Shown: piece after piece, positions 52,943-63,429 of the stretch
How positions within the stretch are numbered: the first letter of the stretch is position 1
How the letters are laid out: each line of letters begins with the position of its first letter
Source of the DNA: Xanthomonas sontii
GTDB lineage: Bacteria; Pseudomonadota; Gammaproteobacteria; Xanthomonadales; Xanthomonadaceae
NCBI RefSeq assembly: GCF_040529055.1
Contig: NZ_CP132342.1
Coordinates: forward strand, 1,141,001-1,205,000
DNA length: 64,000 bases
Direction of reading: 5' to 3'
Position numbers and translations under genes: made by a program
Notes under the pieces: model-generated
Seen by the model: the letters and a program-made list of their open reading frames with translations, nothing else
The model's database searches: none
Told to the model about the DNA's origin: nothing

Positions 52943-53015
52943 GAAACGCTCCTTCGACGTGCGAGGACAATGCCTCGCGTCCACGTTGCATGCATGACGT
53001 AACAGCTCCTGTTGC

Positions 53016-53252
53016 TTACGTCGACGGCTTGTTCTTGCTGTACACGATCTTCTTGCTTCCCGCCGCACAACTGCCGATGACCTTCCGATCCTTGACGTCG
53101 CCGTTGTCGACGATGTTCAGCGTGTAGTCCTTGACGCCGTGGGCATCGAGTTTCGCGGTGAGCTCGGCCTTCAACTCCTCGCAAGATCTACCCGCCGCGA
53201 AAGCGGACGAGGAGGCGAAGGCAAGCAGGAGAAGCGCGATGGCTTGTTTCAT
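53016..53252 (-). CDS. DUF1161 family periplasmic protein
   Basis: A 78-residue protein with a signal peptide (AIALLLLAFASSSAFA). The mature part SCEELKAELTAKLDAHGVKD...GSCAAGSKKIVYSK is the DUF1161 pattern with two conserved cysteines, probably a disulphide. ATG 53252. Function unknown. Confidence 0.82.
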   Translation of the reverse strand: MKQAIALLLLAFASSSAFAAGRSCEELKAELTAKLDAHGVKDYTLNIVDNGDVKDRKVIGSCAAGSKKIVYSKNKPST

Positions 53253-53467
53253 GATGGCACCGATAGTCGATGAGGGAGAAAGAGGTTGCGGAAAAAACGT
53301 AAGGTGTGGCGGCTTTGGCATGGCGGTCGACCTGGTCGCTCTCGGGAGCAGCGCCGCCGCGCCGAGTGTAGCAAGCGCAAATTGCATCGACCGCTACCGC
53401 CACCGCACTCGGTCGGCGGCCGGTCGGGAGGAGCGGGACGCCGACGCCGCGGCCTGTTTCGGCGCAC

Positions 53468-54004
53468 TCAGGGATCGACCCACACGCCGGCGTCGTACAT
53501 CAACCGCATCGTGTAGTTGAGCTGGAGGGTCTGGTTCGGGCCGCAGGCGATCTGCGTGGTCTTGTCCGATGCTCCAGGTCCGGAGACGGAGATGGACGAA
53601 GCGGATCTGAGCGGGTCGAACAGGCTGTACCGGTAGCCGCCGTTGCTGAACTCGATCGATGCGTTGCCGTTGGGAAACGTGTTGTAAGTGAAAAGACCCG
53701 TCGGCGGCTTCTGCTGTGCGGGGTACTGCAGCACCAGCTTGCCGCTCTCCGACGCTCGGTACTGCAGGTAGCCCGAGGTCCGGTTGACCGCCTTCGACGA
53801 GCATAGCGAAAACTCTCGCTTGCGCGTCTGGCACGTCCACAGGGTGAGCTCGTCCTTGCCGCACAGCGGGCTGTGCTGGTATTCGCTCTCGGACTCCTGC
53901 AGTGTCGCTTGGCTGATGGATGGCACTGGCTCAGACGCTGGTGCTGCGAGCGGCAGGCTCGTCAAGGTCGCTGTCATGGCAATGCTTGCGATTGTCTTCT
54001 TCAT
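53468..54004 (-). CDS. Secreted protein, unknown function
   Basis: A 178-residue protein with a signal peptide (KTIASIAMTATLTSLPLAAP). Mature cysteines occur in SPLCGKDELTLWTCQTRK, FSLCSSKAV and IACGPNQ. The pattern 'ELTLWTCQTRKREFSLCSS' suggests a conserved lipoprotein-like or lectin-like module, but I cannot name it. ATG 54004. Confidence 0.62.
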   Translation of the reverse strand: MKKTIASIAMTATLTSLPLAAPASEPVPSISQATLQESESEYQHSPLCGKDELTLWTCQTRKREFSLCSSKAVNRTSGYLQYRASESGKLVLQYPAQQKPPTGLFTYNTFPNGNASIEFSNGGYRYSLFDPLRSASSISVSGPGASDKTTQIACGPNQTLQLNYTMRLMYDAGVWVDP

Positions 54005-54090
54005 GTTGTGCCAATCCCGTTGTGCCGGGTCATGTCAGAGGAGAGTCGGTGTGGACGAAACGGCGGCGTCGCCTGTTGCAGCATGGAGGT

Positions 54091-54630
54091 CTAATGCGGA
54101 GGCCGGGACCTTGCCAATAGCGTCCGAGCGCGCCTGCCCAGCTTGTCGCGATCTTTCAAGTAGATTGTAGGAGCATGGGTGACCGCAACGGTGGTCGCTG
54201 CCTGCAGTGGTGAAAGCTGGCTAAGCGGTTTGCCGAATTCCCGATTGGCAAAGCTGCTCAATCCATGATCTGTGCCGTTGTAGGCAAGACTGCAGTAGAG
54301 GCCGTAGATGTGCGACTCGTCGAAGTGCATCGGTAGCAGCATGCTCCAAAGCGCGTTGCGCACGTGCGACTGACCTTGCGCCAAATCCGTGTAGACGAGG
54401 GACGTCACCAGGCGAGCCGCATGCGGGGAGGGCGATCCCACATTCGCATCGATCAGCCTGCGAATCGCTTCGGGAGGAGTGGCGTCTTCTGGATTGGCGT
54501 GGGCGAGCAGATCGCGGATTCGGGCCAGATGTGGGCGGACAGCGAGCGCATCGTAAGCGACCAATGCGACAAGCGTTGCCAGGAGGAGCAGCGCCGTTCC
54601 TTTTCCAACGAATCTGATGATCTTGACCAT
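54091..54630 (-). CDS. Membrane protein with GT51 (transglycosylase)-like C-terminal segment
   Basis: A 179-residue protein with one N-terminal helix (ALLLLATLVALVAYDALAV). Residues about 110-172 (YGLYCSLAYNGTDHGLSSFA, EFGKPLSQLSPLQAATTVAV, RDKLGRRARTLLAR) resemble the latter part of GT51 peptidoglycan glycosyltransferases: YGxxxAAxxYFGKxxxxLxLxEAA and ERRNxVL. The upstream catalytic lobe with the Glu of EDxxFxxH is not evident. It may be a stand-alone, non-catalytic wall-binding protein. ATG 54630. Confidence 0.62.
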   Translation of the reverse strand: MVKIIRFVGKGTALLLLATLVALVAYDALAVRPHLARIRDLLAHANPEDATPPEAIRRLIDANVGSPSPHAARLVTSLVYTDLAQGQSHVRNALWSMLLPMHFDESHIYGLYCSLAYNGTDHGLSSFANREFGKPLSQLSPLQAATTVAVTHAPTIYLKDRDKLGRRARTLLARSRPPH

Positions 54631-54658
54631 GAGCGTCAGCCAACCTTAGGGCGACATT

Positions 54659-54697
54659 GGCTGCTGTAGTCGCGTGCTGCACGCGACTACAGCAGCC
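54659..54697. repeat. Perfect 18-bp inverted repeat (hairpin) overlapping a gene end
   Basis: Two perfect 18-bp arms (GGCTGCTGTAGTCGCGTG and its complement) flank a 3-nt loop. The right arm covers the last codons and stop of the membrane-protein gene ending at 54687. It could be a strong terminator for leftward transcription, though no U run follows, or the scar of a mobile element. Confidence 0.75.
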
Positions 54698-55061
54698 GGC
54701 GTTGATCGGCCGCGCGCCGAAAAACCCAGCCGACGAGCAAGCCGAGGCCTGTGGAGGCGAGCAGCTGCAGCCATTCCAGAGCGACAAACATGGCTGGTTC
54801 GTCCGTCATGTCTGGTGGCAATAGCGCCACGAGAACATCCGCGAAGGCGGCGTAGATGACCAGGATGAGGCAGGCGTGCGCGAGGCGGTGTTGCGCCACG
54901 CGCAACGCGAGGTGTGCGAAGAGTGCGGCGCAGAGCAGGAAAGAGAGATGTGTCCAGGCATTCACCAAGCCGCCTATCTCGAATAAGCCGCTGAAAAAGC
55001 CAACGCCGCACCGGAGAACAAACAGCAGGGCGGCATAGGCAAAGATCGATTTCCAGTGCAT
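54687..55061 (-). CDS. Membrane protein, unknown function
   Basis: A 124-residue protein with four hydrophobic segments (SIFAYAALLFVLRCGVGFFS, THLSFLLCAALFAHLAL, ACLILVIYAAFADVLVALLP, ALEWLQLLASTGLGLLVGWV). ATG 55061. It ends inside the 18-bp inverted repeat. No family was recognised. Confidence 0.62.
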   Translation of the reverse strand: MHWKSIFAYAALLFVLRCGVGFFSGLFEIGGLVNAWTHLSFLLCAALFAHLALRVAQHRLAHACLILVIYAAFADVLVALLPPDMTDEPAMFVALEWLQLLASTGLGLLVGWVFRRAADQRRLL

Positions 55062-55212
55062 GGCCGGCTGTACGGGGCGCGCGATCAACGAGCGAGAAGT
55101 GCGTCGCGTGCTGAAAGGGTGGGGACACTCCGCATCGCGCAAACGACGCGCTACGCCGGTCCGATGCCGGCTCTGCGTTGGCGCGCCGTGCCGCCTGACG
55201 TTGCCAGCGCCA

Positions 55213-55599
55213 TCAACGCAGGGTGCCCTCGCCGACCTTGCGCCCGCCCTCATAGGCGATGAACGACCTGTCTTTTTCCAAAACGTGGAACTGATCGATG
55301 CAGCTCAGAGACACCGCAGCGGTCTCGCCGGGTTCGATCTTCTCCTGCGCTTTGGAAATGCGCACCGCACACATGACGTCCTTACTCTCACCGGAGAATC
55401 GCACCTGTGGGCGGTAGTTGTCGTAAATCGCGTTGTCACGCCCCACCTTTTCCTGGCGCGTCAACAAGGTGAACGAGATCGGCACAGCGGCATCGGCGGG
55501 GTAGGTCAGTACCGTATCTTGGGAATTGCCCGCCGTGGCAGAAAAACAGAAGACCAGCAATGCGAGTGCAAGAAGCGTACAGCGACGGAGCGATTTCAT
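55213..55599 (-). CDS. Secreted EF-Tu domain III-like protein
   Basis: A 128-residue protein with a signal peptide (CTLLALALLVFCFSATA). The mature part aligns by eye with EF-Tu domain III: FTLLTRQEKVGR (EF-Tu VYILSKDEGGR), DNYRPQVRFSGESKDV (KGYRPQFYFRTTDV), IEPGETAAVSLSC (VMPGDNIKMVVTL) and DRSFIAYEGGRKVGEGTL (GLRFAIREGGRTVGAGVV). GTPase and domain II parts are absent. Export of such a fold is unusual. Role unknown. ATG 55599. Confidence 0.68.
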   Translation of the reverse strand: MKSLRRCTLLALALLVFCFSATAGNSQDTVLTYPADAAVPISFTLLTRQEKVGRDNAIYDNYRPQVRFSGESKDVMCAVRISKAQEKIEPGETAAVSLSCIDQFHVLEKDRSFIAYEGGRKVGEGTLR

Positions 55600-55682
55600 C
55601 GGGCGGCCTGCCTTCTTGGGTGGAAAATGGTGCCTGAGCCGTGAACCAAGCCGGCTCGGGCCGGTCGTGCCTGCATCGAGGC

Positions 55683-56090
55683 TCATGCATGTGGCCCCAG
55701 CATCAGGGTGTACGCGCGAATGCTAGCCGACCTGATCTGATCCTTGGTCATCGATTTGTTGCCGCGCACCGCCTCGGCAGGCACGAGCATGACCGTCGTC
55801 CGCCCATCGCCGGTGTTCCAGCCAAAAGCCACGACTTCCTTGTCGGCGAGGAACGACTGATCCCCGTCTTCGATATCCGAACACAGGATGCTGCCGTTCG
55901 GCTCGGTGTTACTCGATGCGGTGACATGCACCAGTCCGATCGCGCTATCGACGAGCACCTGATCCCTGTGACCAGCCGAATTGACCCTCCCTTCCACAAC
56001 CGAAGCGGTGTAGCCGAGAGACACGAGATGACCGGCGACGATCGACGCCAGGTGCTTTTTGCGATCGAGTTTGCTCTTGCCTGCAATCAT
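55683..56090 (-). CDS. Hypothetical protein next to the integron
   Basis: A 135-residue soluble protein (KLDRKKHLASIVAGHLVSLG...VDSAIGLVHVTASSNTEP) without a recognised domain. The alternating helix/strand pattern near residues 15-60 could be a nuclease-like core; that is a guess. It lies beyond the last cassette gene, with no attC between, so it is treated as the chromosomal flank of the array. Confidence 0.58.
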   Translation of the reverse strand: MIAGKSKLDRKKHLASIVAGHLVSLGYTASVVEGRVNSAGHRDQVLVDSAIGLVHVTASSNTEPNGSILCSDIEDGDQSFLADKEVVAFGWNTGDGRTTVMLVPAEAVRGNKSMTKDQIRSASIRAYTLMLGPHA

Positions 56091-56166
56091 GGGATGTCCT
56101 GTCGATCAGCAAGGATGCATGGATGGAACCGGACTACGCATGGGGGGGCGCTTGCATGGCGTCTTG

Positions 56167-56352
56167 TCACTCGGCTTTCGCTGCGTGTGCGGGCCTCTTG
56201 CAGGTCGACGGGGGAAAGACCGTGCCCTGCCAAGAGACGCCGTCAGCATAGAAGAGCGAGTCGTCCAACGTGTATCGGTCATCACTGAGCGGAACGGACC
56301 AAAGCGTATCAACCGTGGACCCGCCCTCATCATCTGGGACACGGAACAACAC
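56167..56352 (-). pseudogene. Cassette 8: truncated DUF4265-type gene at array end
   Basis: The frame downstream of attC A reads KVLFRVPDDEGGSTVDTLWS...YTLDDSLFYADGVSWQGTVF, the N-terminal half of DUF4265 proteins, then an unrelated tail CKRPAHAAKAE and a stop at 56167. No ATG is in frame near the expected start; GTG 56352 is the best candidate. The family is usually about twice as long, and no attC follows. The last cassette therefore appears truncated, probably by a deletion at the array end. Confidence 0.6.
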
Positions 56353-56379
56353 CTTGGGAGTCGGGTCGTTACTCGTGAG

Positions 56380-56439
56380 TCCTAACGCCTCAGTCAAGCC
56401 GCGGTGCGAAGCGGCGTCGGCTTGAACGAATTGTTGGCG
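56380..56439 (-). repeat. attC site A (cassette 7)
   Basis: A 60-bp site. On the minus strand it runs from GCCAAC, through the CAATTCGTTCAAGCCGACG and CGGCTTGACTGAGGC arms, to core GTTAGGA. It matches the Xanthomonas-type attC consensus shared by sites C-F. The 3' end of the cassette-7 frame reads into it. Confidence 0.88.
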
Positions 56440-56978
56440 CGCATCCACTTTCGATGCTGCGTGAAAGCTGTGGTGCCAAACGCTAACTCGATGAGCGCGC
56501 CAGCGGCAACCACGAAGACGGCGGGCGCGCGACATAACGCCAAGACAATTGCGCTCGCGGCTAGCGCCAGACCCAACGCCCAGTAGAGTCGCATGCCATA
56601 CACAGATGCAAACACCAGATAGCGGCCCCCGATGACGAGCAGCATGCCCAGGAAGAACCAAGTCGGCTGACGGAGGCCCAGCCCGTACGCGAGCGGCAAG
56701 CTGAAGATGAGCCAGAACGTGCTCGCTCCCGCAAGTTGACCGAGCGGATTGCCTTCACCGTGTGCGCCAGAGGCTCCAAGAAGCTTGCACAGCAGCACGC
56801 TGACCGGATAGATCAGCATGCCGCCAATAAGCAGCGACCAGATAGCACGCTCTGGTGTGACGAATGCCGCAAACGCAGTGGCGACTGCCCACGCCGTCGC
56901 CGATGCCACGATCCCGGTACTTCCGCTCAAGTAGCCGCGACGCATGTCCCACTGCGCGTCTCCAATCGTCATCTCCAT
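56394..56978 (-). CDS. Cassette 7: DUF7010-like membrane protein
   Basis: A 194-residue polytopic protein with about six hydrophobic segments (IVASATAWAVATAFAAFV, AIWSLLIGGMLIYPVSVLL, STFWLIFSLPLAYGLGL and others). Its last residues, NNSFKPTPLRTAA, are encoded by the attC itself, a common outcome in Xanthomonas cassettes. It resembles DUF7010-type membrane proteins; function unknown. ATG 56978 lies just inside the degenerate attC B boundary. Confidence 0.75.
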   Translation of the reverse strand: MEMTIGDAQWDMRRGYLSGSTGIVASATAWAVATAFAAFVTPERAIWSLLIGGMLIYPVSVLLCKLLGASGAHGEGNPLGQLAGASTFWLIFSLPLAYGLGLRQPTWFFLGMLLVIGGRYLVFASVYGMRLYWALGLALAASAIVLALCRAPAVFVVAAGALIELAFGTTAFTQHRKWMRANNSFKPTPLRTAA

Positions 56979-57002
56979 CGAGCCCCCTTCTCGCTGTTCT
57001 GT

Positions 57003-57303
57003 GTGCTAATTGCTTCAGTTGAGCCGCGTTGCTAAGCGACGCCGGCTTGAACGAATGGTGAAGCGGCGGCGCGAGGCGGTGGTAGAGCATGGTCAGCGCT
57101 CCCCAGCACTGCCGCCGAGTGACGAGCATGCCACAGATTGCGGTCTTGGGGCTTGCCCGAGGCGCTGACCGCTGGATGTGACCGAGCCCGAAGGCAATGA
57201 GCGCAGCGGAGCAATGAAAATGGCCGACGAAGCGGCGAGCGATCCGATGGCGGGAAACGTAAGGGCTGCGCACCGGAGCCGTCCGCTGCAGCGCCCAGTT
57301 AGG
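57003..57303 (-). repeat. attC B: degenerate/composite site after cassette 6
   Basis: The right edge (57297-57303) reads CCTAACTGGGC on the minus strand, a normal R'' end. The left 60 bp (57003-57061) is attC-like (CATTCGTTCAAGCCGGCG ... CGGCTCAACTGAAG), but the core reads ATTAGCA instead of GTTAGCA and the inner end reads CACCATTCG. Between them lie 240 bp with long inverted repeats, for example GGTCAGCGC/GCGCTGACC (57091-57099, 57162-57170). It may be two fused attC sites or a remnant of a lost cassette. Confidence 0.6.
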
Positions 57304-57305
57304 TT

Positions 57306-57641
57306 TCATTCTTCGCTCCATGCAAGACTGGGCAGCCGATCTTGCGATGGCAGCCAGTAGGCGAGCGCCTGAAGCGCATGCTCCCTGGTGACGCCGTGCG
57401 CGAGAAAACCTCTGTGGTCGTGGACGCGCACATCGAAGTTGTTGTCCGCACCCGCGCTAATGATGAAATTTCCAAAATCTACCTGGTTGCCCAAGCATGC
57501 GACGAACAGCTCTACATCGTGCTGAAGACTGCTGTTTGCAAACGCAAGAGCATCCGCTTCGCTGTGGAAGCGTCGGCTGGAATTTGCGGAAGCCGTGCCG
57601 GCGATTTCAAGTTCGATGGCGAAGTGTGTACCTGGCCGCAT
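57306..57641 (-). CDS. Cassette 6: hypothetical protein
   Basis: A 111-residue soluble protein, MRPGTHFAIELEIAGTASAN at the N-terminus, with two strand-rich halves and no recognised family. It lies between degenerate attC B and attC C, on the minus strand as expected for cassettes read away from attI. ATG 57641 lies 6 bp inside the attC C core. Confidence 0.65.
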   Translation of the reverse strand: MRPGTHFAIELEIAGTASANSSRRFHSEADALAFANSSLQHDVELFVACLGNQVDFGNFIISAGADNNFDVRVHDHRGFLAHGVTREHALQALAYWLPSQDRLPSLAWSEE

Positions 57642-57646
57642 GTGAG

Positions 57647-57706
57647 ACCTAATGCGTCAATTAAGCCGACCCGCGAAGCGGGTTCGGCTTGAATGAATTG
57701 TTAGCC
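57647..57706 (-). repeat. attC site C (cassette 5), core mutated
   Basis: A 60-bp site with R'' GGCTAAC and arms CAATTCATTCAAGCCGAAC and CGGCTTAATTGACG. Its core reads ATTAGGT where GTTAGGT is expected (57647-57653). The G of GTTRRRY is next to the crossover point, so this change should cripple recombination. Confidence 0.85.
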
Positions 57707-58150
57707 CGCAGGCTTGTGTAGCTGGGTAGGCCAAGCACCTTGACCATTGCCACCCTTGAAGAAGACACGACCATTGGGCTGGATGGAGGAAATTACAAAC
57801 TCCTGCTCGAAAGAGCGTAAATCTCCATCATGCTCGAATCGAGTGAGGCGAATAACGCGATCTCCAGGCTTCAGGTTGAGCGCAACAATTGCATCTTGGT
57901 TCTTGGCGAAAAGAGCCTCACCAATCTTGGCGCTAGCGACACGCTTTGAATCGGTGGAAACGTCTTGCCCAAGCGATGATGCGAAAGCGCGTTGACGATC
58001 GCTGGATGGCTCAGCGGGTTCGTGCCCGATTGCGGCTGCCACACGGTCCAGCAATCGGGCTGCAGCCACGTCAAACGTGTCAAGAACAACATCGATGCCT
58101 AGCGAGGCCGCGAGATGTATCTGCTCTTCTGATGGTGGAGATGCGGTCAT
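57701..58150 (-). CDS. Cassette 5: hypothetical protein with internal repeat
   Basis: A 149-residue soluble protein. Residues 10-37 and 53-80 are a 43-residue-spaced repeat with the pattern A-x-SLG-x-DV...D...VA-x-A-x-I/L (LAASLGIDVVLD / FASSLGQDVSTD). The C-terminal half (LKPGDRVIRLTRFEHDGDL) is strand-rich and may be a small barrel. No family name. The stop lies within attC C. ATG 58150. Confidence 0.66.
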   Translation of the reverse strand: MTASPPSEEQIHLAASLGIDVVLDTFDVAAARLLDRVAAAIGHEPAEPSSDRQRAFASSLGQDVSTDSKRVASAKIGEALFAKNQDAIVALNLKPGDRVIRLTRFEHDGDLRSFEQEFVISSIQPNGRVFFKGGNGQGAWPTQLHKPAG

Positions 58151-58161
58151 TTTTTCCTGCG

Positions 58162-58221
58162 GGCTAACACCTGAGTTAAGCCGCGCCGCAAAGCGGCGTC
58201 GGCTTGAACGAGTTGTTAGCT
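58162..58221 (-). repeat. attC site D (cassette 4)
   Basis: A 60-bp canonical site: R'' AGCTAAC, arms CAACTCGTTCAAGCCGACG and CGGCTTAACTCAGGT, core GTTAGCC. It is intact by inspection and nearly identical to sites E and F. Confidence 0.9.
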
Positions 58222-58225
58222 GCGT

Positions 58226-58759
58226 TCACGGGAGCCTGACCGACAGCCCCGAATTGGGTCCAGGCGGCAGGCCAAGCGCCGGCTCCACGCCGGACGATGT
58301 CCGAAGGTCCTGCAGCAAGGCATCGGGCTCAAAGTGCTTTCCAATGATTGCCTCGGACTCGGGACGAGGGTTTTCTGAGTGCCTGGCTCGATAGGCGACG
58401 ACGGATCGCTGCCCGTCAGCGATGGCGCGCTGACACAACCCCCGAGCGTAGAAGCGATTGAACTCACCTTCTGCGAGCGTGGTGTTCGCGGTTACGGGAA
58501 CTTTTGCGACGGTCACGCCGCCTTTTGGTGTTCGGCGCTCCTCGTGCGACCTGAGATAACCCCTAGCTTGCAACTGAGCCGCAAGCCATGAGTCGTCATG
58601 AGAGTCTGCGGCTTGGGCGAGAAGGGCAGGCCATGCTTTGGCCCCTTCTGCGGTAAGGCGGCTACTGATGTATAAGACCCCGCTAGCGACATCGTGCGCG
58701 ATCTCTGATGACATGTTCTCCCGGGTGCGAGAGTCGAGATTTTCATAGTTCAAGGCCAC
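58226..58759 (-). CDS. Cassette 4: hypothetical protein
   Basis: A 177-residue soluble protein starting MALNYENLDSRTRENMSSEI. It has an N-terminal helical block resembling short phage/plasmid-borne proteins (LDSRTRENMSSEI, GVLYISSRLTAEG) and a central FYARGLCQRAIADGQ with one Cys. No family was identified. It ends 4 bp before attC D. An adjacent ATG at 58714 (MSSEI) is an alternative start. Confidence 0.68.
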   Translation of the reverse strand: MALNYENLDSRTRENMSSEIAHDVASGVLYISSRLTAEGAKAWPALLAQAADSHDDSWLAAQLQARGYLRSHEERRTPKGGVTVAKVPVTANTTLAEGEFNRFYARGLCQRAIADGQRSVVAYRARHSENPRPESEAIIGKHFEPDALLQDLRTSSGVEPALGLPPGPNSGLSVRLP

Positions 58760-58776
58760 GATAAACTCTCCTTAGC

Positions 58777-58836
58777 AGCTAACGCCTGAATTAAGCCGCG
58801 CCGCGAAGCGGCGTCGGCTTGAATGGACTGTTAGGC
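58777..58836 (-). repeat. attC site E (cassette 3)
   Basis: A 60-bp canonical site: R'' GCCTAAC, arms CAGTCCATTCAAGCCGACG and CGGCTTAATTCAGGC, core GTTAGCT. It overlaps the stop codon of cassette 3 and looks competent. Confidence 0.9.
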
Positions 58837-59172
58837 CCCAAACCGCTGCACTATGGACTGGCAGGCCGGAAGTGCTTGCGGTGTTGCCCATGCGATTGCC
58901 GATTGTATGTCCGGCTCCAGCTTTGCCAATGCCTCCGGAGCCCAGCGTGCCCGAGCAGCTCCAATGGGTAGCGCATCAACCTCTGACGAGATCATTGCAA
59001 AGGTCATGAAATCTGGGTCACGGACGTCCACCTCGACCTCGCAACGAAGCGCGGCGAGGGAATGGCAGCCCTCCAAGACAGGCATCTCTCCAGCGAGGAC
59101 GCCTGTAGCGATCTCAACCGCTTTCCGGCGAGCTGAGAGCACATACTCCTCGTGTGTCATGCGCTCGATCAT
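58831..59172 (-). CDS. Cassette 3: DUF2489-like protein
   Basis: A 113-residue helical protein. The order SARRKAVEIATGVLAGEMPV, LEGCHSLAALR, DPDFMTFAMISSEVDALPIG, RARWAPEAL and the final ACQSIVQRF matches the DUF2489 pattern (SEtD-lP-G motif, late conserved Cys). Function unknown. The stop is inside attC E. ATG 59172 (or 59160). Confidence 0.78.
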   Translation of the reverse strand: MIERMTHEEYVLSARRKAVEIATGVLAGEMPVLEGCHSLAALRCEVEVDVRDPDFMTFAMISSEVDALPIGAARARWAPEALAKLEPDIQSAIAWATPQALPACQSIVQRFGA

Positions 59173-59176
59173 TGGG

Positions 59177-59236
59177 GTCTAACACCTGAGTTAAGCCGCG
59201 CCGCGAAGCGGCGTCGGCTTGAACGAATTGTTAGAG
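59177..59236 (-). repeat. attC site F (cassette 2)
   Basis: A 60-bp canonical site: R'' CTCTAAC, arms CAATTCGTTCAAGCCGACG and CGGCTTAACTCAGGT, core GTTAGAC. It is intact by inspection. Confidence 0.9.
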
Positions 59237-59245
59237 GGCAAGCCC

Positions 59246-59683
59246 TCAGTCCCAATAGATTGTATACACCTGATAGCCGGGAGGCGGCTCGGGTGCGGCT
59301 GCATGCTTTCCATATGGCCAGCCTGGCCCAATCCCGTCAGACTCTAAGCCTTCAATCCACTGGTCTGCAATGTCTTGTGGCGCGGAAGAGAAAATGTGGA
59401 TGTTCTCTGCGGCGGGCCAAAGATCGCTGTGCTCCAACGACTCGCCCCAATCCTGATGAAGCCCAACAAACACGCCCTGAACATCAGGACGGGCTTCGAT
59501 CTCTTTGAGCCTTGCATAGATGTCACGAATAGAAGGGCGGCCATATCCCCATTGGTTTGGGGCGATCGAGTCTTCTTGTGGGTTACCGATGAAGTAGTCG
59601 TCGAGAGAAACGATGGGAAAGTGCTCGTTGTCAATCCTGTCGAGGCTCTCGAGCTTGTCTAGCAGGGCTCTGCGATATTCCAT
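59246..59683 (-). CDS. Cassette 2: hypothetical protein
   Basis: A 145-residue soluble acidic protein starting MEYRRALLDKLESLDRIDNE, rich in Trp/Tyr/Asp (VFVGLHQDWGESLEHSDLWP, ESDGIGPGWPYGK) and ending QVYTIYWD. It resembles small immunity-type proteins in composition only; no family was recognised. ATG 59683 lies 9 bp inside attC G's core, and the stop is 9 bp before attC F. Confidence 0.68.
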   Translation of the reverse strand: MEYRRALLDKLESLDRIDNEHFPIVSLDDYFIGNPQEDSIAPNQWGYGRPSIRDIYARLKEIEARPDVQGVFVGLHQDWGESLEHSDLWPAAENIHIFSSAPQDIADQWIEGLESDGIGPGWPYGKHAAAPEPPPGYQVYTIYWD

Positions 59684-59691
59684 GTCTTGGC

Positions 59692-59785
59692 CTCTAACGC
59701 TCGCGGTAAGCCGCGCCGGAGTGCGAAGCACGGAGGGCACCCGCAAGCGAAGCTTGTGGGCGTCGGCTTGACCAAATAGTTAGGC
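59692..59785 (-). repeat. attC site G (cassette 1), enlarged
   Basis: A 94-bp site with normal ends (R'' GCCTAAC at 59779-59785, core GTTAGAG at 59692-59698) and the usual AAGCCGACGCC / GGCGCGGCTTA arms. The centre has an extra imperfect hairpin (about 34 bp more than sites A and C-F), including CACAAGCTTCGCTTGCGGGT. It belongs to the first cassette next to attI. Confidence 0.85.
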
Positions 59786-59813
59786 TGGTGAGCGAAGGCA
59801 TGATTGGAGGCGG

Positions 59814-60215
59814 TCAAAAGTTTTGTAGTGCGCGCCAAGCATTTAATTGCTTCTCCAAGGTATGCAACTTCATTTCATGATCATCTGGCCATTCTGAGAA
59901 GGCTTTGAGCTTTATCTGCTCAAAGGTACCCTTGGGCACATCGACGGCTTCATGGTTGAAAAAAGCAATGCCGGCATCGAGCTGCTTTTTGAATGTGTGA
60001 AGCTCCATCTCGTAGTCATCCGGCCAGCTAGATGAGGCAAAGTTGAAGATGGCACCAATGAATTCGTCGGATGCGAACTTTTCTTTGAATACTTCAAGCT
60101 CTTGGAAGGCCTCAACCTGCTTGCCAATGGTATGTCGCTGCATTTCAAAGTCGTCGGGCCAATCCGACTGTGCTTTGAGGCGAATGCGATCCTTGACGTG
60201 ATCTGGGATAGTCAT
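59814..60215 (-). CDS. Cassette 1: protein of three 45-residue WPDD repeats
   Basis: A 133-residue protein built of three exact-period repeats with Trp at residues 19, 64 and 109 (45 apart). Each reads S-x-WPDD-x-EM-x-x-HT-x-x-KQ-x-x-A (SDWPDDFEMQRHTIGKQVEA, SSWPDDYEMELHTFKKQLDA, SEWPDDHEMKLHTLEKQLNA). It is probably an all-helical repeat protein. 'WPDDYEMQ' units occur in small hypothetical proteins of many bacteria, with no function that I know. As the attI-proximal cassette it should be the best expressed. ATG 60215. Confidence 0.72.
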   Translation of the reverse strand: MTIPDHVKDRIRLKAQSDWPDDFEMQRHTIGKQVEAFQELEVFKEKFASDEFIGAIFNFASSSWPDDYEMELHTFKKQLDAGIAFFNHEAVDVPKGTFEQIKLKAFSEWPDDHEMKLHTLEKQLNAWRALQNF

Positions 60216-60238
60216 ACAAAGTCCTGTAGTTCTTGAGG

Positions 60239-60320
60239 GCCTAACTACTATTGGACCGCCCAAAAGCGGTAATGCCCCAAGTATCCACCAACGCCAGACG
60301 TCTGCAAAGGGGGAAATTCC
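60239..60320 (-). other. attI site and leader of the integron
   Basis: Core GTTAGGC on the minus strand lies at 60239-60245, where the first cassette joins. The DNA beyond it towards intI has no attC arms, as expected for attI. A leftward promoter (Pc) may be formed by TTGCAG near 60313 and GATACT near 60291, about 16 bp apart. Both elements are weak matches, so the promoter part is tentative. Confidence 0.6.
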
Positions 60321-60435
60321 CACCCTGCATCAATGACTTGCCTGATGGTGGCCGCGGCTCCGTGCGCCAATGCTGGCTACGTTATCCGACGTTCGAGCAG
60401 GCGTATGAGTTACACCCATGACGATGAAGGCGTAA

Positions 60436-61204
60436 CGGCGCATCCACCGCCAACGTGTTGGAGCCGGTGCGTGGCCGGTTGCGGCTTCGGTAATACAGCC
60501 TGCGCACCGAGCAAGCGTATGTTGGCTGGATACGGCGCTTCATCCTGGCCAACGGCAAACAGCATCCATCGCGTATGGGCAGGCCCAAGTCGAAGCGTTC
60601 CTGACCAGTCTGGCGACTCAGGGACAGGTCTCGGCCGGGACACAGAGTCAGGCGCTGGCGGCGCTGTTGTTCCTCTATCGTGATTTTCTCGGCGTGGAAC
60701 TGCCATGGATGGAGAATCTGGTCCGCGCCAAGCGACCGCGGCGGATTCCGGTGGTGCTCTCGGTCGAGGAGGTCACGCGTTTGCTGGTCGCGCTGGAGGG
60801 ACCTTGCTGGCTGATGGCCGGGCTGCTCTATGGCAGCGGCATGCGGCTGCTGGAATGCCTGCGATTGCGGATCAAGGATGTGGAGCTGGGGCGCGGCAAG
60901 ATCGTGGTGCTTGACGGCAAGGGCGGCAAGGATCGGCGTGTGCCATTGCCAATGCGCCTGGGCGAGCCGCTGCTGCGGCAACGCGATAGTGCACTGCTGC
61001 TGCACGCGGCGGATCTGGCCGAAGGGGCAGGGAGTGTGTACCTGCCGCAGGCGCTGGTGCGCAAATACCCCAATGCGGAGGTTGAACCGGGCTGGCAATA
61101 CCTGTTCCCGGCCGCACATCGGTCGGTGGATCCACGCAGTGGTCGGGTCGGCCGACCAGCTGTCCGAGGAAGTCCAGCGATGCGCAGTCCGCTGGATGGT
61201 CTAG
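60436..61204 (+). pseudogene. intI: Integron integrase intI, inactivated
   Basis: A tyrosine recombinase that would insert cassettes at attI. Recognisable pieces are the N-terminal SAM-like domain (YSLRTEQAYVGWIRRFILAN, then QVEAFLTSLATQGQ), the core with the first catalytic Arg (LLYGSGMRLLECLRLRIKDV) and the IntI-type insert region (SVYLPQALVRKYPNAEVEPG, YLFPAAHRSVDPRSGRVGR). Lesions are TAA at 60491-60493, a frameshift near 60575-60585 and a second near 61150. A stop at 61202 follows AVRWMV, so the HxxR, His and nucleophile Tyr are missing. It is divergent from the cassettes. Confidence 0.88.
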
Positions 61205-61263
61205 GGGCGGCGGCGAGCGTCAAAGGCGTCAGAAAATAATACAGCAGCGGCGTTTGTGATCCC

Positions 61264-61289
61264 GCGTCGGGACTGAAGTCCCTCCCACA
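61264..61289. repeat. 26-bp dispersed repeat, copy 2
   Basis: Identical over 26 bases to 33971-33996, including the palindrome GGGACTGAAGTCCC. It lies between the truncated intI end and the ilvD stop, close to where the integrase 3' end was lost. Confidence 0.7.
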
Positions 61290-61346
61290 GTGCAGTACCT
61301 GGACGCCATGAAGACCGCGGCAACCCACGGCCTTCATGGCAACGCT

Positions 61347-63185
61347 TCACCCCTCCAACATCGCCTTGTCCCGCACCGCCCCCTTGTCCGCACTAGTCGC
61401 CAGCAGCGCGTACGCCTTCAGCGCCGTACTGACCTTGCGCGGGCGCGGTTCCGCCGGCTTCCAGCCGCGCGCGTCCTGGTCGGCGCGGCGCGTGGCCAGT
61501 TCCGCGTCGGAGACCAGCAGGTCGATGCGGCGCTGGGGAATATCGATGCGGATGCGGTCGCCGTCGCGGACCAGGCCGATAGCGCCGCCCGCCGCCGCTT
61601 CCGGCGAGGCGTGGCCGATCGACAGGCCGGAGGTGCCGCCGGAGAAGCGGCCGTCGGTGAGCAGGGCGCATTGCTTGCCCAGGCCCTTGGACTTCAGGTA
61701 CGAGGTCGGGTACAGCATCTCCTGCATGCCGGGGCCGCCCTTGGGGCCTTCGTAGCGGATCACCACGACGTCGCCAGCCTTCACGTCATCGGCGAGGATG
61801 CCCTTGACCGCGGCGTCCTGGCTTTCGAACACCTTGGCGTTGCCCTCGAACACATGGATGGATTCGTCCACGCCGGCGGTCTTCACCACGCAGCCGTCCT
61901 CGGCGATGTTGCCGTACAGCACCGCCAGGCCGCCTTCCTGCGAGTAGGCGTGGGCGACGTCGCGGATGCAGCCGCTGGCGCGGTCGGCGTCCAGGCTGGG
62001 CCAACGCGTGGCCTGGCTGAAGGCGACCTGGGTGGGGATGCCGGCCGGCCCGGCCTGGTAGAAGGTCTGCACCGCGGGGTCGTCGCTCTGGGTGATGTCC
62101 CACTGCGCGATGGCGTCGGCCAGGGTGCGGCTGTGCACGGTGGCCTGGTCGGTGTGCAGCAGGCCGCCGCGCGCCAGTTCGCCGAGGATGGCGACGATGC
62201 CGCCGGCGCGGTGCACGTCCTCGATGTGGTACTTCTGCGTGTTCGGCGCCACCTTGCACAGCTGCGGCACGCGCTTGGACAGGCGGTCGATGTCGCGCAG
62301 GGTGAACGGCACCTCGGCTTCCTGCGCGGCGGCGAGCAGGTGCAGGATGGTGTTGGTGGAGCCGCCCATCGCGATGTCCAGGGTCATCGCGTTCTCGAAC
62401 GCCTGGAAGGTGGCGATGCCGCGCGGCAGCGCGCGCGGGTCTTCGGCGCCGTACCAGCGGTGGCACAGTTCCACCGCGGTGCGGCCGGCCTTGAGGAACA
62501 GTTGCTCGCGGTCGGCGTGGGTGGCGACCACGGTGCCGTTGCCGGGCAGGGCCAGGCCCAGCGCTTCGGTCAGGCAGTTCATCGAGTTGGCGGTGAACAT
62601 GCCCGAGCAGGAGCCGCAGGTGGGGCAGGCGCTGCGCTCGAACGCGGCGACCTTCTCGTCGGAGGCGGTGGGATCGGCGGCGATCACCATCGCGTCGATC
62701 AGGTCCAGGTTGTGGTCGGCGAGCTTGGTCTTGCCGGCTTCCATCGGCCCGCCGGAGACGAACACGGTGGGGATGTTGAGGCGCAGCGCGGCCATCAGCA
62801 TGCCGGGGGTGATCTTGTCGCAGTTGGAGATGCACACCAGCGCATCGGCGCAGTGCGCGTTGACCATGTACTCGACCGAGTCGGCGATGATCTCGCGGCT
62901 GGGCAGCGAGTACAGCATGCCGTCGTGGCCCATGGCGATGCCGTCGTCCACGGCGATGGTGTCGAACTCCTTGGCCACGCCGCCGACGCGCTCGATCTCG
63001 CGCGCGACCAGTTGCCCGAGATCCTTCAGGTGCACGTGGCCGGGCACGAACTGGGTGAAGGAGTTGGCGATGGCGATGATCGGCTTGTGGAAGTCGGCGT
63101 CCTGCATGCCGGTGGCGCGCCACAGTGCGCGGGCGCCGGCCATGTTGCGGCCGTGGGTCGAGGTCTTGGAGCGATAGTCGGGCAT
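61347..63185 (-). CDS. ilvD: Dihydroxy-acid dehydratase
   Basis: A 612-residue iron-sulphur enzyme that makes 2-keto acids for Ile, Val and Leu synthesis. The Fe-S cysteines are in [11 protein letters not shown] and [18 protein letters not shown], with [15 protein letters not shown] and the C-terminal [20 protein letters not shown] also present. ATG 63185 ([20 protein letters not shown]) gives the normal length. It marks the chromosomal site of the Xanthomonas integron and is convergent with the intI remnant. Confidence 0.95.
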
Positions 63186-63429
63186 GGGAGCAGCGAACGA
63201 GCGGGCGGGGAGGCTGGCGATGGTGGCGCGATCGGATCGTTGCTGCTGCAACCGTCCTGGACGCCCACCGGTGGGCCGACCACGTTAGCACGCAGGCTGG
63301 CGCCGCCGCGCGCCGGTCAGGAGTGCGGAGCGGTTCGCAGACCTGCCCAAACACGCTTGGCAGACTGCGGTGGCCGGTGCGTCAGGGGGCGTAGGCCCGG
63401 CTCGCCCATCATGACCACAGGAGGTGTCC

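What the first reader, a model, noticed from the sequence alone, without database searches (positions are those of the whole stretch)
56167..61204. ilvD-linked chromosomal integron with eight cassette genes
Seven attC-type sites, an attI core and an intI relic are visible. All cassette genes run away from intI. The array lies beside ilvD, the known Xanthomonas integron site. Most cassette products have no known function, so this is the window's main reservoir of undescribed proteins.
Basis: partly seen in the sequence, partly recalled or inferred. Interest (0 to 1): 0.75.

Follow-up and report, generated by a model that had tools for sequence, protein, structure and literature searches.

The report
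Inactivated Xanthomonas integron beside ilvD
This is an ordinary gene-collecting element (an integron) at its usual place beside ilvD in a Xanthomonas-type chromosome; its recombinase gene is dead and it carries seven readable collected genes and one broken one, nearly all of unknown function.

Summary
A covariance model trained on attC sites of other genomes finds all seven window attC (31.9-87.1 bits, E 2e-23 to 1e-6); apart from opposite-strand echoes the only other hit up to E 10 has E 0.79. A conserved attI ends at the GTTAG of 60241-60245. intI (60254-61206) is dead: its 5' part lies in another frame with a stop, and a 65-residue C-terminal block is missing; no other match in the genome passes the integron-integrase cut-off. 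Corrections: seven cassette genes are readable, not eight; the last (56167-56385) has lost its start and 3' part; an ORF-less cassette (57006-57304) was missed. Relatives keep ilvD and the distal flank but share few cassettes. The kind is already described (Colombi et al. 2025, PMC12444791): new member of a known kind, low interest in itself. Side result in relatives only: eleven satellite attI sites with their own arrays, ten of them at two shared chromosomal positions, which may explain why arrays outside ilvD sit at conserved places. The window's genome has only the ilvD attI.

The parts
61350..63251 (-). ilvD (dihydroxy-acid dehydratase), conserved neighbour
   Evidence: Pfam ILVD_EDD_N and ILV_EDD_C
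60254..61206 (+). intI relic: 5' part in another frame with a stop, middle part open, 65-residue C-terminal block missing, last residues present
   Evidence: TIGR02249; tblastn with relatives' IntI
60241..60349 (-). attI; cassettes join at the GTTAG of 60241-60245
   Evidence: alignment with 15 sites of other genomes, profile R3 106 bits
59814..60215 (-). C1, 133 aa, three helical WPDDxEM repeats, function unknown
   Evidence: ORF, 13 homologues, model pLDDT 96.5
59693..59785 (-). attC of C1, long type
   Evidence: R2 42.4 bits; not in any training set
59246..59683 (-). C2, 145 aa; listed homologues carry PF27222, function unknown
59178..59236 (-). attC of C2
   Evidence: R2 87.1 bits
58831..59172 (-). 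C3, 113 aa, no family
58778..58836 (-). attC of C3
   Evidence: R2 81.2 bits
58226..58759 (-). C4, 177 aa (GTG start), no family
58163..58221 (-). attC of C4
   Evidence: R2 82.4 bits
57701..58150 (-). C5, 149 aa, no family
57648..57706 (-). attC of C5
   Evidence: R2 73.3 bits
57306..57641 (-). C6, 111 aa, alpha/beta protein of unknown function; no attC of its own found by the models
   Evidence: eight homologues, model pLDDT 80.8
57006..57304 (-). ORF-less cassette of a recurring type, ending in a weak attC (57006-57064)
   Evidence: eight places in the own genome, itself included; 10 of 20 genus genomes, own included; between two attC in G007 and G010; attC R2 31.9 bits
56394..56978 (-). 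C7, 194 aa, DUF7010; its last residues read into its attC
   Evidence: Pfam 112.1 bits against cut-off 27; dN/dS 0.14-0.26 in three comparisons
56381..56439 (-). attC of C7
   Evidence: R2 62.0 bits
56167..56385 (-). C8, broken cassette gene: start lost, 3' part missing
   Evidence: 57-residue match to a longer gene in G013; DUF4265 15.5 bits, below cut-off 27 (frame 56170-56661)

Best explanation
A sedentary chromosomal integron of the Xanthomonas ilvD type whose integrase has been lost. Cassettes were once inserted at attI (60241) by IntI, which recombines folded single strands of attC; the newest lie nearest intI and the oldest (ORF-less cassette, C7, C8) at the far end. The intI copy now lacks its catalytic C-terminal block, so this genome cannot insert or cut out cassettes by itself; the array is frozen and its genes are kept or lost by ordinary mutation and selection. 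Shown here: attC, attI, orientation, broken intI, no other match over the integron-integrase cut-off in the genome, kept flanks, purifying selection on C7. Inferred from established integron biology: the recombination mechanism, the order of insertion, transcription away from intI.
For: Seven attC with a model trained on other genomes whose hairpin shows 16 cells changed on both sides against a mean of 5.9 in 500 shuffles, none reaching it; attI; intI relic and the absence of other matches over the cut-off; ilvD; cassette content that differs between 15 relatives' ilvD stretches; dN/dS 0.14, 0.20 and 0.26 for C7; the same arrangement described genus-wide (PMC12444791).
Against: No promoter was shown: one promoter-like site in the region against 1.5 expected in shuffles. 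attC 59693 does not fold better than shuffles and 57006 is weak with R2. On the smaller alignment with window sites the pair statistics are weaker (cells paired 52 of 500 shuffles as high, covariation score 41 of 500). An integrase from outside could still move cassettes. The open part of the relic keeps 86% identity to G003 IntI with dN/dS 0.27, so the loss may be recent.
Confidence: 0.95

Rival explanations
1. The array is still mobile in trans: attI and most attC are well kept, and an integrase brought in by a plasmid or another strain could still move cassettes.
For: attI 106 bits; five attC at 62 bits or more with R2; integrase-less arrays can be mobilised in trans according to PMC12444791.
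Against: No other match over the integron-integrase cut-off in this genome; the distal cassettes are degraded.
Confidence: 0.15
2. The array is a composite of two ages: an old, vertically inherited distal part (ORF-less cassette, C7, C8) and a later proximal part (C1-C6), with a deletion at the C6 junction that removed the attC of C6.
For: ORF-less cassette followed by C7 is shared in that order with G007, G010 and, over most of the stretch, G011; C6 runs directly into the ORF-less cassette without an attC found by the models.
Against: Not exclusive with the best explanation: old cassettes at the far end are expected in any integron. The junction itself was not compared with a close isolate.
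Confidence: 0.4
3. The attC-like sequences are dispersed repeats unrelated to an integron.
For: attC-like sites also occur elsewhere in the genome (18 outside the window).
Against: They alternate with ORFs on one strand next to attI, intI and ilvD; the hits elsewhere are mostly clustered too (9, 5 and 2 sites, and two single sites).
Confidence: 0.01

Closest known systems
Xanthomonas chromosomal integron downstream of ilvD (Colombi et al. 2025, PMC12444791; earlier survey by Gillings and colleagues known to me only through its introduction and recall)
   Same: Place beside ilvD, broken intI, array of mostly unknown genes, cassette content that differs between species, further arrays elsewhere in the genome, recurring 'empty' cassette.
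   Different: Own cassette set; seven readable genes; a particular form of intI loss.
CALIN (attC arrays lacking an integrase)
   Same: The genome has further attC clusters without intI; the ilvD array is functionally integrase-less.
   Different: The ilvD array still has attI and an intI relic.
sRNA-Xcc1 cassette (RF02221)
   Same: A cassette RNA of this genus, present in arrays of two relatives, L145 and L148.
   Different: No match in the window or in its array at E up to 1.

Membership tests
Chromosomal integron of the Xanthomonas ilvD type | place next to ilvD | tested here: met
Chromosomal integron of the Xanthomonas ilvD type | intI gene of the integron-integrase family | tested here: met
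   relic at 266.2 bits in one frame against cut-off 265; 219.4 bits for the shorter TTG-started ORF
Chromosomal integron of the Xanthomonas ilvD type | attI | tested here: met
Chromosomal integron of the Xanthomonas ilvD type | array of attC sites alternating with genes on one strand | tested here: met
Chromosomal integron of the Xanthomonas ilvD type | cassette content that varies between relatives | tested here: met
   C2, C4, C5 without match, C1, C3, C6, C8 with one genome each, C7 with three, in stretches of 15 relatives
Functional integron | intact integrase | tested here: not met
Functional integron | cassette promoter Pc | tested here: inconclusive
   consensus scan at chance level
Functional integron | observed insertion or excision of cassettes | not testable with these tools
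   needs isolates or an experiment
DUF7010 (PF22765), protein C7 | score over the Pfam cut-off | tested here: met
   112.1 bits, cut-off 27
DUF4265 (PF14085), protein C8 | score over the Pfam cut-off | tested here: not met
   15.5 bits, cut-off 27; the gene is truncated
sRNA-Xcc1 (RF02221), ORF-less cassette | covariance-model match | tested here: not met
   no match at E up to 1
Recurring 'empty' cassette of Colombi et al. 2025 | same sequence | not testable with these tools
   the parts of the paper that I read give no sequence
Immunity protein of the Imm1 kind, protein C6 (idea from recall) | profile or fold match | tested here: inconclusive

The most novel reading that the evidence does not exclude
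Arrays away from ilvD in this genus are not all scattered insertions of cassettes: some are satellite platforms, each with its own attI and mostly a 5' piece of intI, at shared chromosomal positions: a second position beyond ilvD in six of the 20 genus genomes (about 5-6 kb away in five, about 30 kb in G008), and beside a glutamate-cysteine ligase gene in four. One integrase gene would then have served several attI sites at once. This would explain the conserved positions of integrase-less arrays that Colombi et al. contrast with the broad distribution seen for attG insertion in E. coli. It does not apply to the window's own genome, where no second attI was found.
Probability: 0.5. Interest if true: 0.5.

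Novelty: new member of a known kind. Interest (0 to 1): 0.22.

Why it matters
In itself it adds one more inactivated Xanthomonas integron with seven readable cassette genes, six of them without a Pfam family over cut-off in my scan and one (C7) under purifying selection. The wider value is comparative: an attI profile made from this locus and its relatives reveals attI sites at other shared positions in relatives, a direct and testable reason for the conserved placing of integrase-less arrays.

Full report
What is there. The window lies at 1141001-1205000 of a one-contig 5.02 Mb genome. On the minus strand, from attI at 60241 down to 56167, there are seven attC sites, seven readable cassette genes, one ORF-less cassette and one broken cassette gene; on the plus strand, between attI and ilvD, lies a broken intI. 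IlvD is confirmed by Pfam.

attC test. Model R1 was built from six window sites and three sites elsewhere in the genome. It finds seven sites in the window, among them 59693-59785, which was not used for training. To reduce circularity I built R2 from 20 sites of other genomes only. In those 20 sites, 16 cells changed on both sides, against a shuffled mean of 5.9 and none of 500 shuffles as high; 94.5% of cells pair, against at most 44.4% when the partner is slid; the number of further pair types is less telling (54 of 500 shuffles as high). On the nine-site alignment the same counts are weaker (52 of 500 for cells paired, 41 of 500 for the covariation score). R2 finds the same seven window sites with 87.1, 82.4, 81.2, 73.3, 62.0, 42.4 and 31.9 bits; five of them echo on the other strand, 47-63 bits lower, and the only other hit up to E 10 has E 0.79. 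The 20 sites had been picked with R1, so the test is not fully independent. As single-stranded DNA six of the seven sites have 0 to 2 of 200 shuffles as good; the long site 59693 has 40.

attI. The sequence next to intI aligns with 15 other sites from eleven further genomes of the genus; 12 of the 16 rows end in GTTAG, where cassettes join. A profile of the 16 sites (R3) gives 106 bits in the window and no other hit up to E 1 in the window or in six other stretches of the genome.

intI. The best open frame covers positions 38-238 of the 315 of TIGR02249; positions 1-44 lie in another frame that contains a TAA. Compared with the uninterrupted frame of G003, the match stops at its residue 307 and resumes at 373, so 65 residues of the catalytic C-terminal part are absent (that this block holds the catalytic residues is from recall of tyrosine recombinases). 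The remaining TIGR02249 hits in the genome are below the cut-off, as are those in all 14 control genomes; I take them for Xer recombinases, from recall. In the 20 held genomes of the genus, own included, an uninterrupted match of at least 300 positions occurs in two, G003 and G017; G002 has a full-length match with one TAG.

Cassettes. Of eight cassette products only C7 passes a Pfam cut-off, DUF7010. NCBIfam and PADLOC gave no credible match. C1 has 13 matches, the nearest from an Azonexus metagenome-assembled genome at 80% identity; its predicted structure is all helical, three repeats, pLDDT 96.5. C2 has 153 matches, 120 listed, which carry PF27222, a family that did not appear in my own Pfam scan of C2. 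C6 has eight matches, one of them 98% identical without a named source. C8 aligns over 57 residues (72%) with a longer gene in G013, but here the start codon is lost and the 3' part is missing. Between C6 and C7 lies a non-coding stretch that has eight places in the own genome, itself included, and matches in 10 of 20 genus genomes, own included, at E up to 1e-5; in G007 and G010 the same stretch lies between two attC, so I read it as an ORF-less cassette. The models find no attC between C6 and this stretch.

Comparison with relatives. I fetched stretches of 15 other genus genomes around the intI matches and searched them, together with four named Xanthomonas loci, five other named loci and three own stretches, with the cassette proteins at E up to 1e-4. 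C2, C4 and C5 have no match; C1 (45%, G004), C3 (54%, G013), C6 (44%, G008, in a satellite array) and C8 (72%, G013) have one genome each; C7 has three (87-89%, G007, G010, G011). The C3 match lies next to distal flank genes of G013. The distal flank 53000-55080 is kept in pieces in seven of the relatives' stretches. By IlvD the nearest are G006, G010, G007, G009, G011 and G013 (97.8-99.1%), against 88-91% for the named X. pisi, X. melonis, X. phaseoli and X. populi; the genus name rests on these and is an inference. C7 evolves under purifying selection (dN/dS 0.20, 0.14, 0.26 against G010, G007, G011). The rest of these genomes was not searched with the cassette proteins, except C1 in 369 genomes of the class, where only the own genome matched.

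Known or new. Colombi et al. 2025 (PMC12444791; I saw the abstract, parts 1-4 of 8 of the text and found passages) describe this kind: intI downstream of ilvD, mostly broken, cassette sets that differ between species and mostly of unknown function, a recurring empty cassette, and integrase-less arrays elsewhere. Their introduction cites the earlier PCR survey by Gillings and colleagues, which I did not read. Other papers were seen only in search listings. The window is a new member of this known kind.

Side result. The attI profile R3, run over the 20 genus genomes, own included, hits 15 at E up to 0.01. Besides the ilvD attI there are eleven satellite sites: at a second position beyond ilvD in G002, G018, G007, G010, G013 and G008, with the same chromosomal flank; beside a GCS2-type glutamate-cysteine ligase gene in G002, G018, G003 and G014; and one more in G008, about 14 kb on the array side of its ilvD attI. 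Six of the eleven were in the training set, five were not. All eleven have attC on the expected side and strand within 1.5 kb, those of G003 only weakly (19.2 and 16.3 bits). A 5' piece of intI is found by protein match at nine of the eleven, not at G014 and G003. Against this reading: four further R3 hits (L212, L213, L219, L225) have no attC, and one weak hit in G011 (L222) has attC on both sides. I found no mention of satellite attI sites in the passages read or in the listings of two literature searches, which cover open-licence papers only. The window's genome has 18 attC outside the window in five places but no second attI; at the second position it carries about 1.5 kb without attI or attC.

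Noticed in passing
L199, L205, L207, L210, L211, L217, L218, L220, L223, L224, L226 (genus relatives): Satellite attI sites with their own attC arrays, nine of eleven with a 5' piece of intI, ten of them at two shared chromosomal positions.
   Followed up: partly
G000:C1 817.8-823.8, 1439.5-1441.2, 1675.3-1676.1 kb and single sites at 1616.9 and 2519.7 kb: 18 further attC in the window's genome outside the window (9, 5, 2, 1, 1), without a recognisable attI.
   Followed up: partly
L158:3671-6424 (G000:C1, about 814.7-817.4 kb): Three genes matching Thoeris defence proteins (ThsB, ThsA, ThsB) lie at the head of the attC cluster at 818-824 kb.
   Followed up: partly
window 57006-57304; copies in L158, L159, L141, L144, L146, L147, L153, L157 and others: A recurring ORF-less cassette with a conserved core of about 60 bases; 30 distinct core copies collected, no structure signal.
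   Followed up: partly
L145:2993-3080 and L148:11452-11539: The small RNA family sRNA-Xcc1 (RF02221) occurs in arrays of two relatives.
   Followed up: no
window 61263-61295: A short repeat of about 33 bases between intI and ilvD has many near-identical copies in this and related genomes.
   Followed up: no
window 55082-56170: A stretch with two ORFs (55213-55686 and 55683-56090) between the array and the conserved distal flank; neither had a match in the relatives' stretches searched.
   Followed up: partly
L196:3530-5075 (G000:C1, about 1208.3-1209.9 kb): At the place where six relatives have a second attI and array, the window's genome has about 1.5 kb with other plus-strand ORFs.
   Followed up: partly
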